This document shows, in pieces, positions 25,901 through 43,900 of a DNA stretch of 64,000 nt. The notes under the pieces were generated by a model that was not told the DNA's origin, ran no database searches, and worked only from the letters and a program-made list of their open reading frames with translations. Made by a program: the position numbers and the translations under genes. Within the stretch, counting starts at the first letter, position 1; each line of letters starts with the position of its first letter. Where the stretch lies: NCBI GenBank assembly GCA_026874595.1, contig CM049306.1:4354019-4418018 (forward strand). The letters are read 5' to 3'. The DNA comes from Sipunculus nudus (taxonomy: Eukaryota > Annelida > Sipuncula > Golfingiida > Sipunculidae).

Positions 25901-28900
25901 TTTTAAAACTGTTATATATCACATAACAGTGTGGTAGTGGGGCATGTCATCACAGTAAAAAAGCCAAGGATGCAGTAATTTTAATGATTTAAATGTTGTG
26001 AAAGAGGAATCACTGAAATAAAAGGTATGAAAGAAGAGGGTTTTCACCTGAACTGCTTCGCAGCTGAAAAGTTTTTTTGTCCAAGTTACTAATTACTTAT
26101 ATCTTATATATTCATGTACGGCAGGACAAGCCTTGAGGGGACACCAGGATGAGCGTACACCTTGAATGTATGAAAGCAACCCCATTGTCCCAACCCATTT
26201 CCTACTGAAAGTGACCTGTTGTGAGCAGACACCTGCTAAATGTGGACAGGGACAGTCATGCTTGGCCCAAAATCCTGTCATGAATGGACACCTGAGTCCG
26301 ATATATATCAGCAGCCACCAGTTGCGCTGCGCGAGTGTACCAGCTGAGTAGCTCTGTGGGATGCTTGGTGCATGCCATGATTGGAACAGCACATATTTAG
26401 ATTCATTGATATAATGTATCACATGACTGACTCGACCAGAGAGCATTAACATTTGTAAAAATCTTAATGAGAACACATCCATATTAGAAAATCAAAGCTG
26501 GCATAGCTAACAAATGATATGTAAGGTCTCTGTGAGCCGCTGATAGAGGTTTACCTGATGAGTTGTGCTGCATGTACTCAGGATGACTGATGAGTTGTGC
26601 TGTGTGTTCTCAGGATGACTGACATGTGATGTGTTACCTGATGAGTTGTGCTGTGTGTTCTCAGGATGATTGACATGTGATGTGTTACCTGATGAGTTGT
26701 GCTGTGTGTTGTCAGGATGATTGACATGTGATGTGTTACCTGATGAGTTGTGCTGTGTGTTCTCAGGATGACTGACATGTGATGTGTTACCTGATGAGTT
26801 GTGCTGTGTGTTCTCAGGATGATTGACATGTTATGTGTTACCTGATGAGTTGTGCTGTGTGTTCTCAGGATGACTGACATGTGATGTGTTACCTGATGAG
26901 TTGTGCTGTGTGTTCTCAGGATGATTGACATGTGATGTGTTACCTGATGAGTTGTGCGGTGTGTTCTCAGGATGATTGACATGTGATGTGTTACCTGATG
27001 AGTTGTGCTGTGTGTTGTCAGGATGATTGACATGTGATGTGTTACCTGATGAGTTGTGCTGTGTGTTCTCAGGATGACTGACATGTGATGTGTTACCTGA
27101 TGAGTTGTGCTGTGTGTTCTCAGGATGATTGACATGTGATGTGTTACTTGATGAATTGTGCTGTGTGTTCTCAGGATGACTGACATGTGATGTGTTACCT
27201 GATGAGTTGTGCTGTGTGTTGTCAGGATGATTGACATGTGATGTGTTACCTGATGAGTTGTGCTGTGTGTTCTCAGGATAATTGACATGTGATGTGTTAC
27301 CTGATGAGTTGTGCTGTGTGTTCTCAGGATGACTGACATGTGATGTGTTACCTGATGAGTTGTGCTGTGTGTTCTCAGGATGATTGACATGTGATGTGTT
27401 ACCTGATGAGTTGTGCTGTGTGTTCTCAGGATGACTGACATGTGATGTGTTACCTGATGAGTTGTGTTGTGTGTTCTCAGGATGATTGACATGTGATGTG
27501 TTACCTGATGAGTTGTGCTGTGTGTTCTCAGGATGATTGACATGTGATGTGTTACCTGATGAGTTGTGCTGTGTGTTCTCAGGATGATTGACATGTGATG
27601 TGTTACCTGATGAGTTGTGCTGTGTTCTCAGGATGACTGACATGTGTTGTGTTACCTGATAAGTTGTGCTGTGTTCTCATGATGACTAACATGTGATGTG
27701 TTACTTGATGAGTTGTGTTGTGTGTTCTCAGGATGATTGACATGTGATGTGTTACCTGATGAGTTGTGCTGTGTGTTGTCAGGATGATTGACATGTGATG
27801 TGTTACCTGATGAGTTCTGCTGTGTCCTCAGGATGACTGACATGTGATGTGTTACCTGATGAGTTGTGCTGTGTGTTCTCAGGATGATTGACATGTGATG
27901 TGTTACCTGATGAGTTGTGCTGTGTGTTGTCAGGATGATTGACATATGATGTGTTACCTGATGAGTTGTGCTGTGTGTTGTCAGGATGACTGACATGTGA
28001 TGTGTTACCTGATGAGTTGTGCTGTGTCCTCAGGATGACTGACATGTGATGTGTTACCTGATGAGTTGTGCTGTGTGTTCTCAGGATGATTGACATGTGA
28101 TGTGTTACCTGATGAGTTGTGCTGTGTGTTGTCAGGATGATTGACATATGATGTGTTACCTGATGAGTTGTGCTGTGTGTTGTCAGGATGATTGACATGT
28201 GATGTGTTACCTGATGAGTTGTGCTGTGTCCTCAGGATGATTGACATGTGTTGTGTTACCTGATGAGTTGTGCTGTGTGTTCTCAGGATGATTGACATGT
28301 GATGTGTTACCTGATGAGTTGTGCTGTGTGTCCTCAGGATGATTGACATGTGATGTGTTACCTGATGAGTTGTGCTGTGTTCTCATGATGACTAACATGT
28401 GATGTGTTACCTGATGAGTTGTGCTGTGTGTTGTCAGGATGATTGACATATGATGTGTTACCTGATGAGTTGTGCTGTGTGTCCTCAGGATGATTGACAT
28501 GTGATGTGTTACTTGATGAGTTGTGTTGTGTGTTCTCAGGATGATTGACATGTGATGTGTTACCTGATGAGTTGTGCTGTGTGTTTTCAGGATGATTGAC
28601 AGGTGATGTGTTACCTGATGAGTTGTGCTGTGTGTTTTCAGGATGATTGACAGGTGATGTGTTACCTGATGAGTTGTGCTGTGTGTCCTCAGGATGATTG
28701 ACATGTGATGTGTTACCTGATGAGTTGTGCTGTGTGTTGTCAGGATGATTAACATACGATGTGTTACCTGATGAGTTGTGCTGTGTGTCCTCAGGATGAT
28801 TGACATGTGATGTGTTACCTGATGAGTTGTGCTGTGTGTTGTAAGGATGATTGACACGTGATGTGTTACCTGATGAGTTGTGCTGTGTGTTCTCAGGATG

Positions 28901-40900: not shown

Positions 40901-43900
40901 TTGACATGTGTTACCTGATGAGTTGTGCTGTGTGTTCTCAGGATGACTGACATGTGATATGTTACCTGTTGAGTTGTGCTGTGTGTTCTCAGGATGACTG
41001 ACATGTGATGTGTTACCTGATGAGTTGTGCTGTGTGTTCTCAGGATGATTGACATGTGTTACCTGATGAGTTGTGCTGTGTGTTCTCAGGATGACTGACA
41101 TGTGATATGTTACCTGTTGAGTTGTGCTGTGTGTTCTCAGGATGACTGACATGTGATGTGTTACCTGATGAGTTGTGCTGTGTGTTCTCAGGATGATTGA
41201 CATGTGATGTGTTACCTGATGAGTTGTGCTGTGTTCTCAGGATGATTGACATGTGATGTGTTACCTGATGAGTTGTGCTGTGTGTTCTCAGGATGATTGA
41301 CATGTGATGTGTTACCTGATGAGTTGTGCTGTGTGTTCTCAGGATGACTGACATGTGATGTGTTACCTGATGAGTTGTGCTGTGTGTTCTCAGGATGACT
41401 GACATGTGATGTGTTACCTGATGAGTTGTGCTGTGTGTTCTCAGGATGATTGACATGTGATGTGTTACCTGATGAGTTGTGCTGTGTGTTCTCAGGATGA
41501 CTGACATGTGATATGTTAACTGTTGAGTTGTGCTGTGTGTTCTCAGGATGATTGACATGTGATGTGTTACCTGATGAGTTGTGCTGTGTGTTCTCAGGAT
41601 GACTGACATGTGATGTGTTACCTGATGAGTTGTGCTGTGTGTTGTCAGGATGATTGACATGTGATGTGTTACCTGATGAGTTGTGCTGTGTGTTGTCAGG
41701 ATAATTGACATGTGATGTGTTACCTGATGAGTTGTGCAGTGTGTTCTCAGGATGATTGACATGTGATGTGTTGTCTGGTTGAGGAGATGTGTCAGAGCTG
41801 TCGTTCACTTGATTTTCAGTGACTGCTTCTGTTTTTTCTGCAGGGGCTGTGTCAGGACTTGAACAGTTGGCAGATTCACCACCCCCTGTCCCGTTCTGCT
41901 CCATGGGCTCAGCTTTAGCAGGACAGTCACTGTGATTTGTGTCCTCTGATGATGATGGGGCAGTTGCCACCTGAAGGAAGGAAAAATAAGTAAAAGATGA
42001 AATCTTTCATAATCTCATAATACATCAAACTACTTGATTACATTACCACTCAAGACACATGAGAACCAAAGAAAGGGCCACATAGAGACAGAGGAAGACA
42101 TAATGAGAGCATCAAACAGACACCTATACAGATTAATATAAGGCAACATGAGGTGCATGTTCAAATGTGCCTCAAGATAAATATAGCAACACCTAGGACT
42201 GTAACATGCTTAAATTACAAACACAATCTGGTAAGGATGACCATATTATTTCTGTATGAATCTGACTTGGGGGGAGTCATATTAGCAACTTTAAAAAACT
42301 GAAACTGGTATAACATATTCAGCTAAACAAGGGACCCATGGGTCACTGTGCCCAGCTGAAGTTGACCATAACAGTAAAAATCTAAAATAATATCAAATGG
42401 AGATAAAGTCTGAGAAGAAGAGGTTTTATAGACCATGGTTGGTTGATAAGATTAAGGAAATTATCTCAAATAATATTTTCTGATCTGATTATGTGGTTCC
42501 TAATGATGAACCTTGAGCATGCAAGTAGTTTGTGAATAAAAGATCTATACTATTACCATGATCATTGGTTGGCTTTCTGATAAGCTGTTGACAGTTCAGC
42601 AGTTTACACATTTGGCCAATTAATTGCTTTTTTTTTTTATTAGACCAACATTTTTTTCTATTTTATAAAATGTATACAGTTGTATTTTATAACAAGTGAC
42701 CCCTGGGTCATGACGCTCAGCCGACTGACATGTTGATAATATGTCCTTGCACAGACAACTAATTAAGATAGGTGGCATCATTGTTCATGCATATTAGCTT
42801 AAGTTCTTCAAGACCCATAAGCACAACAAATCTGATGACAATCCAACCAGCCTTTCATGAGGAATCTGGCAATTTGTGTGTATTTTGCATTATTTCTGGG
42901 GTGCTCAATCATACCCCAAAACTCTGAGAATATAGGTCACTGTGACCAAATTTCTGGTCTCTGGGGAGAACTTTTTAGGAACTCTCAGGATATCAAGTTA
43001 GAAGATTCTGGGCCCCATGGTTATGATTTGTGCCCTACTTTGGTATCAAATTTTCAATTATTCTGAGGGGTGCTTATAAGCCCCACAGCTCAGAAAATAT
43101 GTGTAACAGAGACCTTAATTCACGTTTCCAAGGAGACTTTTACAGATCTCCCTGGATGTCAAGTTTCAAGATTCTAGGACCAATGGTTACAATTTAAGCC
43201 CTGTTAAGGGACGACAGCATCTTTTAAGGTGTCAAAACAGAGAAAAAATCGAAAAAATACAAGTGACACCAACAGACTGATGGAACACTCCATGATGCAT
43301 ATGCATGCAAAGAATAATGCCGATCCATGCACTAGTTGTTCAAATACTCGAGCTTTTGTATCAAATTTTTAGTTATCCTGGGGGGTACTTTTCGAGCCCC
43401 ATAGCTCAGACAATATGGGTGACAGAGACTTAATTCCATGTTTCCATGGAGACTTTTCATGGACCTCTCAGCATGTTAAGAAATAAGATTCTAGGTCTAG
43501 TCATTACGATTTGTGCCCTGTTAACAACTGACCGCATCTTTTAAGGTCTCAAAAATAGATAAATAAAATAGTAAAATATTGAAAAAATACAGGTGGCACC
43601 ACAAGTCTACAGAAACAGATGAAACACTCCATGATCAATATCCATGCAAAGAATCAAGGTGATCAATGCATTAGTTGTTCAGATATTTGAGCTTTTGTAT
43701 CAAATTTTTCATTATTCTGGGGGTACTTCGGAGCCCCATAGCTTGAAAAATATGGGTAACAAAACCTAATTCCAGGTTTCCAAGGAGATTTTTCATGGAC
43801 CTCCCTGGATGTAAAGTTAAAAGATTCCAGGTCCAGTGGTTACGATTTGTGCCTTGTTAACAGAAAGACGGACGGATGGCGGGACCGACAACGGACAAAG

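What the first reader, a model, noticed from the sequence alone, without database searches (positions are those of the whole stretch)
26555..41970. A 15-kb minisatellite that multiplies an SRPK 5' splice site about 300-fold
Seen: the spacer exon of an SRPK gene (right edge 41970) runs in frame into a 51-bp tandem array. Most unit junctions read CATCAG|GTAACA on the gene strand, a 5' splice site with seven contiguous U1 pairs. The array's other end is CATCAG|GTAAAC, followed by unique intron. A 51-bp unit is 17 codons, and a donor at any in-frame unit ends in phase 1, exactly matching the AA-phase start of the next exon (split codon GAA). Inference: the array arose by repeated duplication of the exon-intron boundary, so exon length, protein repeat number and donor number are coupled. 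A tandem array of functional-looking splice donors of this size is not something I know as a described system.
Basis: partly seen in the sequence, partly recalled or inferred. Interest (0 to 1): 0.92.

Follow-up and report, generated by a model that had tools for sequence, protein, structure and literature searches.

The report
Minisatellite grown from an exon-intron boundary
A short piece of DNA straddling the end of an exon in a splicing-kinase gene has been copied about 311 times in a row, so the intron holds hundreds of look-alike splice sites; almost all are probably silent passengers, but the same kind of array turns up at several other exon ends in this genome, and the species would be a good place to test why.

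Summary
An intact SRPK gene on the minus strand carries a 15.2-kb, 51-bp minisatellite that starts inside a spacer exon and ends at CATCAG|GTAAAC. I count 311 units. 294 have GT at the junction and 246 read CAG|GTAACA. The array is unique to this locus.

The functional coupling is not. Only the first 9 GT donors keep frame and avoid a stop, which falls at 41214-41212. Donor columns are no better conserved than the rest of the unit, and the in-frame units show no purifying selection.

At two other arrays, an ABCC/MRP gene and another SRPK exon, joining the exon at its first donor aligns without gaps to known proteins. The exon-proximal donor is therefore the real one there, and the copies are intronic.

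The kind is already known: the human IFI6 (6-16) minisatellite, and tandem repeats at human exon-intron boundaries.

New here are the size and the recurrence. Six arrays in the genome (five genes) begin at an exon end, and donor-bearing arrays are about 4-fold more frequent per motif than a reversed-motif control.

The parts
41724..41970 (-). SRPK spacer exon in its shortest form (247 nt, ends phase 1 at the exon-proximal donor CATCAG|GTAACA)
   Evidence: Acceptor CTTCCTTCAG at 41971; open frame; GT at 41723-41722
26555..41772 (-). 51-bp minisatellite, 311 units, 246 with CAG|GTAACA at the junction; its first ~48 nt are the exon tail, the rest is most likely intron
   Evidence: TRF, unit parse, junction table
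41724..41772 (-). Exon tail homologous to the unit (founding segment: last ~47-49 exon nt plus 2-4 intron nt)
   Evidence: Alignment of exon tail with unit 2, mismatches at 3-4 of 49 bases
41212..41772 (-). The only stretch of the array readable in the exon's frame: donors 1-10 (9 with GT), then a 49-bp unit and a stop codon at 41214-41212
26549..26560 (-). Far-end donor CATCAG|GTAAAC, probably the ancestral donor, followed by unique intron
   Evidence: Sequence
29123..36583 (-). Recent block duplications inside the array: runs of up to 44 identical unit types shifted by 2.0-4.8 kb
   Evidence: Unit-type comparison
25558..25889 (-). Next SRPK spacer exon (starts AA, completing split codon GAA; ends ACACAG|GTAAAT)
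   Evidence: Frame and splice motifs; unique in the genome
24341..24428 (-). SRPK kinase exon ([13 protein letters not shown])
   Evidence: tblastn to SRPK
23682..23789 (-). SRPK kinase exon
   Evidence: tblastn
21292..21455 (-). SRPK kinase exon (donor GAGAG|GTAAGT)
   Evidence: tblastn
19777..19959 (-). Last SRPK kinase exon (homologous part)
   Evidence: tblastn

Best explanation
A tandem duplication copied the last ~47-49 nt of an SRPK spacer exon together with the first 2-4 nt of the intron. Each copy carried a donor, and the segment then expanded to 311 units by unequal exchange, including kilobase-scale block duplications. Duplications of this kind cost little because the upstream exon keeps its own donor: the exon-proximal copy at 41724 is spliced to 25889, giving a 247-nt exon, and every later unit becomes intron. 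The other ~290 donors are mostly unused passengers that drift neutrally. The next few in-frame donors may be used at low level. The same process has acted at other exon ends in this genome. Shown: the anatomy, the boundary origin, the frame limit, the lack of conservation of donor columns, and recurrence at other exon ends. Inferred: which donor is used in this exon, neutrality, and the exchange mechanism.
For: The exon tail aligns with the unit over its last 49 nt with only a few mismatches, and the break lies at intron +2/+4. Only donors 1-10 keep frame and a stop follows. The donor window ranks 27th (all copies) and 26th (distinct unit types) of 51 circular windows for divergence; 19% of the 51-bp units have lost the -1 G. 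The first 9 in-frame units carry 0 synonymous and 11 nonsynonymous differences. The longest run of 51-bp units (19) lies at the far end, beyond the stop, so the run of 51-bp units at the exon end needs no coding constraint. At an ABCC/MRP exon with a 42-bp boundary array of about 40 units, the product of the first donor aligns to MRP1 without a gap over ...ILYFFIQ|RFY.... The SRPK exon ending at 78531, followed by an array carrying CAG|GTAAGT, likewise aligns to SRPK2 without a gap at its first donor. Further boundary-spanning arrays lie at SRPK 74498-74309 (57 bp), L026 (44 bp), L028 (30 bp) and L033 (42 bp).
Against: No RNA evidence is available for this species. Splice-site choice among equal donors can favour the intron-proximal site in some model substrates (own knowledge), which here would mean far-end units. 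The spacer of SRPK is disordered and would tolerate extra repeats, unlike the ABCC and kinase-core exons used as evidence. The enrichment at donors is not explained by neutrality alone.
Confidence: 0.72

Rival explanations
1. One reading: many donors are used, so array length sets exon length and the number of [17 protein letters not shown] repeats in the SRPK spacer.
For: Donors 1-10 (9 with GT) are in frame and match the next exon's phase. The CAG|GTAACA duplex energy (-8.0) is close to that of the donor the gene appears to use at 25558 (CAG|GTAAAT, -8.3). The IFI6 minisatellite really does supply alternative donors in human mRNA (PMC4526556).
Against: Frame is lost after unit 10 of 311, so about 97% of the donors give a truncated or NMD-prone product. 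There is no conservation of donors or of coding sequence. Exons ending at later donors would exceed 450 nt from donor 5 on.
Confidence: 0.14
2. Each AG|GT junction is a dual-specific (or recursive) splice site, so multiples of 51 nt are spliced out within the array.
For: The unit is bounded by CAG|GT, as in the UBC tandem array of dual-specific sites (PMC10809524) and the AGGT duplication model of intron gain (PMC4974935).
Against: The acceptor side is poor: 12% T and longest pyrimidine run 3, against 41-71% T for the 12 real acceptors of this gene. A 51-nt intron is also near the lower limit for animals (own knowledge).
Confidence: 0.04
3. The array works as a dense U1-binding platform, suppressing premature polyadenylation in a long intron or titrating U1 as feedback on a splicing kinase.
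For: 246 seven-base U1 sites in 15 kb on the sense strand of an SR-protein kinase gene. U1 telescripting is an established process (PMC5499120).
Against: The U1-pairing columns are no better conserved than the rest of the unit. Similar arrays sit in an ABCC gene and other genes, so nothing is specific to splicing regulators.
Confidence: 0.05
4. An ordinary intronic minisatellite that merely abuts the exon; the donor-like motif is chance.
For: The gene is full of minisatellites (26 merged arrays over 70 kb). A second 12-kb array of 58-bp units lies in the intron upstream.
Against: The unit is homologous to the exon tail and contains the gene's own donor at both ends. Further arrays with the same anatomy start at exon ends.
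Confidence: 0.05

Closest known systems
Human IFI6 (G1P3, 6-16) exon 2 minisatellite (Turri, Cuin and Porter 1995, NAR 23:1854; paper itself not held, read through citing papers PMC4526556, PMC2572611, PMC3618361, PMC2915984)
   Same: A minisatellite whose units each carry a splice donor; downstream units can serve as alternative donors
   Different: Much smaller (12-bp units, about 26 copies by my recollection). Usage of several donors is shown there and not here. Here the frame is lost after unit 10.
Internal tandem repeats at exon-intron boundaries of human segmentally duplicated genes (PMC2812944)
   Same: Minisatellites expanded across exon-intron boundaries change where the intron begins
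   Different: Those average 30 bp x 4 units; this one is 51 bp x 311
Dual-specific splice-site arrays such as UBC and VCX3A (PMC10809524)
   Same: Tandem units joined at AG|GT, 3n unit length
   Different: Here the acceptor side is weak and usage is untested
[quoted passage not shown]
   Same: Tandem duplication over an exon-intron boundary
   Different: Here no new intron is needed; the old intron grows at its 5' end

Membership tests
IFI6-type splice-donor minisatellite | Tandem units that each contain a donor, starting at a real exon end | tested here: met
   246 CAG|GTAACA junctions; exon tail homologous to the unit
IFI6-type splice-donor minisatellite | Two or more donors used in mRNA | not testable with these tools
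   No RNA data for this species
Tandem repeat at an exon-intron boundary (human ITR class) | Array spans a coding exon-intron boundary | tested here: met
Tandem repeat at an exon-intron boundary (human ITR class) | Copy number varies between paralogs or individuals | not testable with these tools
   One assembly; block duplications inside the array suggest instability
Dual-specific splice-site array | Unit junction reads AG|GT | tested here: met
Dual-specific splice-site array | Junction has a usable 3' splice site (pyrimidine tract) | tested here: not met
   12% T, longest pyrimidine run 3, below all 12 real acceptors of the gene on T content
SRPK kinase gene | SRPK-type kinase core with inserted spacer | tested here: met
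   tblastn exons and phmmer to SRPK1/SRPK2

The most novel reading that the evidence does not exclude
In this genome 5' splice sites act as recurrent seeds of minisatellites: exon-intron boundary segments are duplicated more often than other sequence (by mutation bias or by tolerance), and the surplus donors in large arrays are used enough to create length-variable exons or to shape U1 binding across whole introns.
Probability: 0.25. Interest if true: 0.75.

Novelty: new variant of a known kind. Interest (0 to 1): 0.52.

Why it matters
An array of about 250 near-identical donors next to one real exon is a natural experiment on how the spliceosome picks among equal 5' splice sites, far beyond any engineered substrate I know of. 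The recurrence at other exon ends gives replicates in one genome, including exons where protein homology already fixes the genuine donor. If donors truly seed minisatellites, that would be one route by which introns lengthen.

Tried and rejected
Processed pseudogene as a record of the spliced form: none; both exons are single-copy. Whole-genome DNA search with two units could not be scored, so I used a 27-mer pattern instead. The 1995 IFI6 paper is not in the library. Donor conservation and purifying selection were tested and not found. The dual-specific site idea was weakened by the poor acceptor side. The species was not identified.

Full report
What is there. The window is C1:4354019-4418018 of a 1.43-Gb assembly of an unnamed animal. 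It holds the 3' half of an intact SRPK gene on the minus strand. Exons with SRPK homology lie at (window coordinates, continuing beyond the window) 89616-89509, 82961-82854, 82108 on, 78636-78531, 76800-76629, 74621-74485, then the spacer exons 41970-41724 and 25889-25558, then 24428-24341, 23789-23682, 21455-21292 and 19959-19777. All exon frames are open and the kinase core is complete.

The array. A 51-bp minisatellite runs from 41772 to 26555. Parsing gives 311 units: 207 of 51 bp, 55 of 46 bp, the rest shorter or slightly longer. 294 junctions have GT, 246 read CAG|GTAACA and 42 read CAA|GTAACA. The array is confined to this locus (205 of 205 27-mers). Runs of up to 44 identical unit types shifted by 2-5 kb show recent block duplication.

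Origin. Aligned back from the first donor, the exon tail AACACATCAC...CATCAG matches the unit over 49 bases with only a few mismatches, and the match breaks where the unit shows GT(AA) from the intron. The far end of the array is CATCAG|GTAAAC followed by unique intron. So the founding unit was about 47-49 exon nt plus 2-4 intron nt, and the ancestral donor is most likely the far one.

Coding consequences. Donors 1-10 (9 with GT) keep the reading frame and phase. Unit 11 is 49 bp and a stop follows at 41214-41212. Over the whole array the donors fall in all three phases (131/86/77). The longest run of 51-bp units, 19 units, is at the far end, beyond the stop. The first nine in-frame units differ at 0 synonymous and 11 nonsynonymous sites, where 22-33% synonymous would be expected without selection. 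The donor columns are no better conserved than other columns (rank 27 of 51 windows for all copies and 26 for distinct unit types), and 19% of the 51-bp units have lost the -1 G. None of this suggests selection on repeat protein or on donor copies.

Which donor is used. RNA is not available here, but homologous arrays give an indirect answer. Searching the genome for three CAGGTAAGT at 29-59 bp spacing found 14 distinct arrays on contigs C1-C4. For five of these arrays the 5' edge is in hand. Four begin at what looks like an exon end: an ABCC/MRP exon (42 bp, about 40 units, L029/L032), a PH-like exon (30 bp, L028; Pfam PH E 0.028, below cut-off), and open exons with acceptors in L026 (44 bp) and L033 (42 bp). 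In the ABCC gene the exon joined at its first donor to the next exon aligns with MRP1 without a gap over the junction, so the exon-proximal donor is the genuine one and the copies are intron. In SRPK itself, the exon ending at 78531 is followed by an array with 116-bp units that carry CAG|GTAAGT, yet joining at the first donor aligns with SRPK2 without a gap. A third SRPK donor, at 74485, is spanned by a 57-bp array of 3.4 good copies plus decayed ones. By analogy the SRPK spacer exon most likely ends at 41724. This is an inference, and the spacer, being disordered, would tolerate more variation than those exons.

How often. In the SRPK gene 3 of 11 donors lie in or within 5 bp of the first unit of a tandem array, against 0.28 expected from uniform placement (P 0.0024, post hoc, and the finding itself is one of the three). 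Genome-wide, arrays of CAGGTAAGT or AAGGTAAGT number at least 22 on C1-C4, against 6 for the same 9-mers read backwards (the AAG list stops at C4:24.5 Mb, which is conservative). Single occurrences number 31,641 and 34,989, so the rate per motif is about 4-fold higher (P about 0.0008). Counts were made by hand from listings, and single counts include array members, so this is suggestive rather than settled. CAG alone is not significant (P 0.07). Why donors should be enriched is not explained by the passenger model.

Comparison with what is known. A minisatellite providing multiple splice donors was described for the human interferon-induced gene 6-16/IFI6 in 1995; a citing paper states that two downstream repeat units serve as donors (PMC4526556). 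Tandem repeats at exon-intron boundaries that alter introns are known in human segmental duplications (PMC2812944). Tandem arrays of dual-specific AG|GT sites are known in UBC (PMC10809524), but the present unit lacks a credible acceptor. The present case is a large variant of a known kind. The recurrence within one genome is the part worth pursuing.

Verdict. The origin by boundary duplication is supported. The proposed coupling of donors, exon length and protein repeats is limited to at most nine donors and is unsupported by conservation. Most likely these are intronic passengers behind a functioning first donor.

Noticed in passing
window 57361-64000, continuing to 69358 in L011: A second giant minisatellite (58-bp unit, about 12 kb, about 219 copies) lies in the SRPK intron just upstream; its plus strand (antisense to the gene) repeats the donor-like CAGTAAGAG.
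   Followed up: no
L012-L013 region, window coordinates 78528-77356 and 78964-78659: Another SRPK exon has tandem arrays on both sides: a 50-bp x6 array up to its acceptor and 116/232-bp units carrying CAG|GTAAGT starting at its donor.
   Followed up: partly
L012 region, window coordinates 74498-74309: The KKKLKKK exon of SRPK has its donor ATCAG|GTAAAAC duplicated in a 57-bp array of 3.4 copies, with more decayed donor-like copies downstream.
   Followed up: partly
L029/L032 (C2:8.51 Mb): An ABCC/MRP transporter exon with a 42-bp boundary array of about 40 donor-bearing units; homology fixes the first donor as the genuine one.
   Followed up: yes
window 22320-22861, 23071-23644, 20199-20495: Nearly perfect arrays (45 bp x12 at 100%, 28 bp x20.5 at 99%, 41 bp x7.2 at 99%), probably very recent.
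   Followed up: no
G000 contigs C61-C137: Long single-ORF ABC transporters, the same 596-aa ORF on many small contigs, suggest bacterial (symbiont or contaminant) contigs in the assembly.
   Followed up: no
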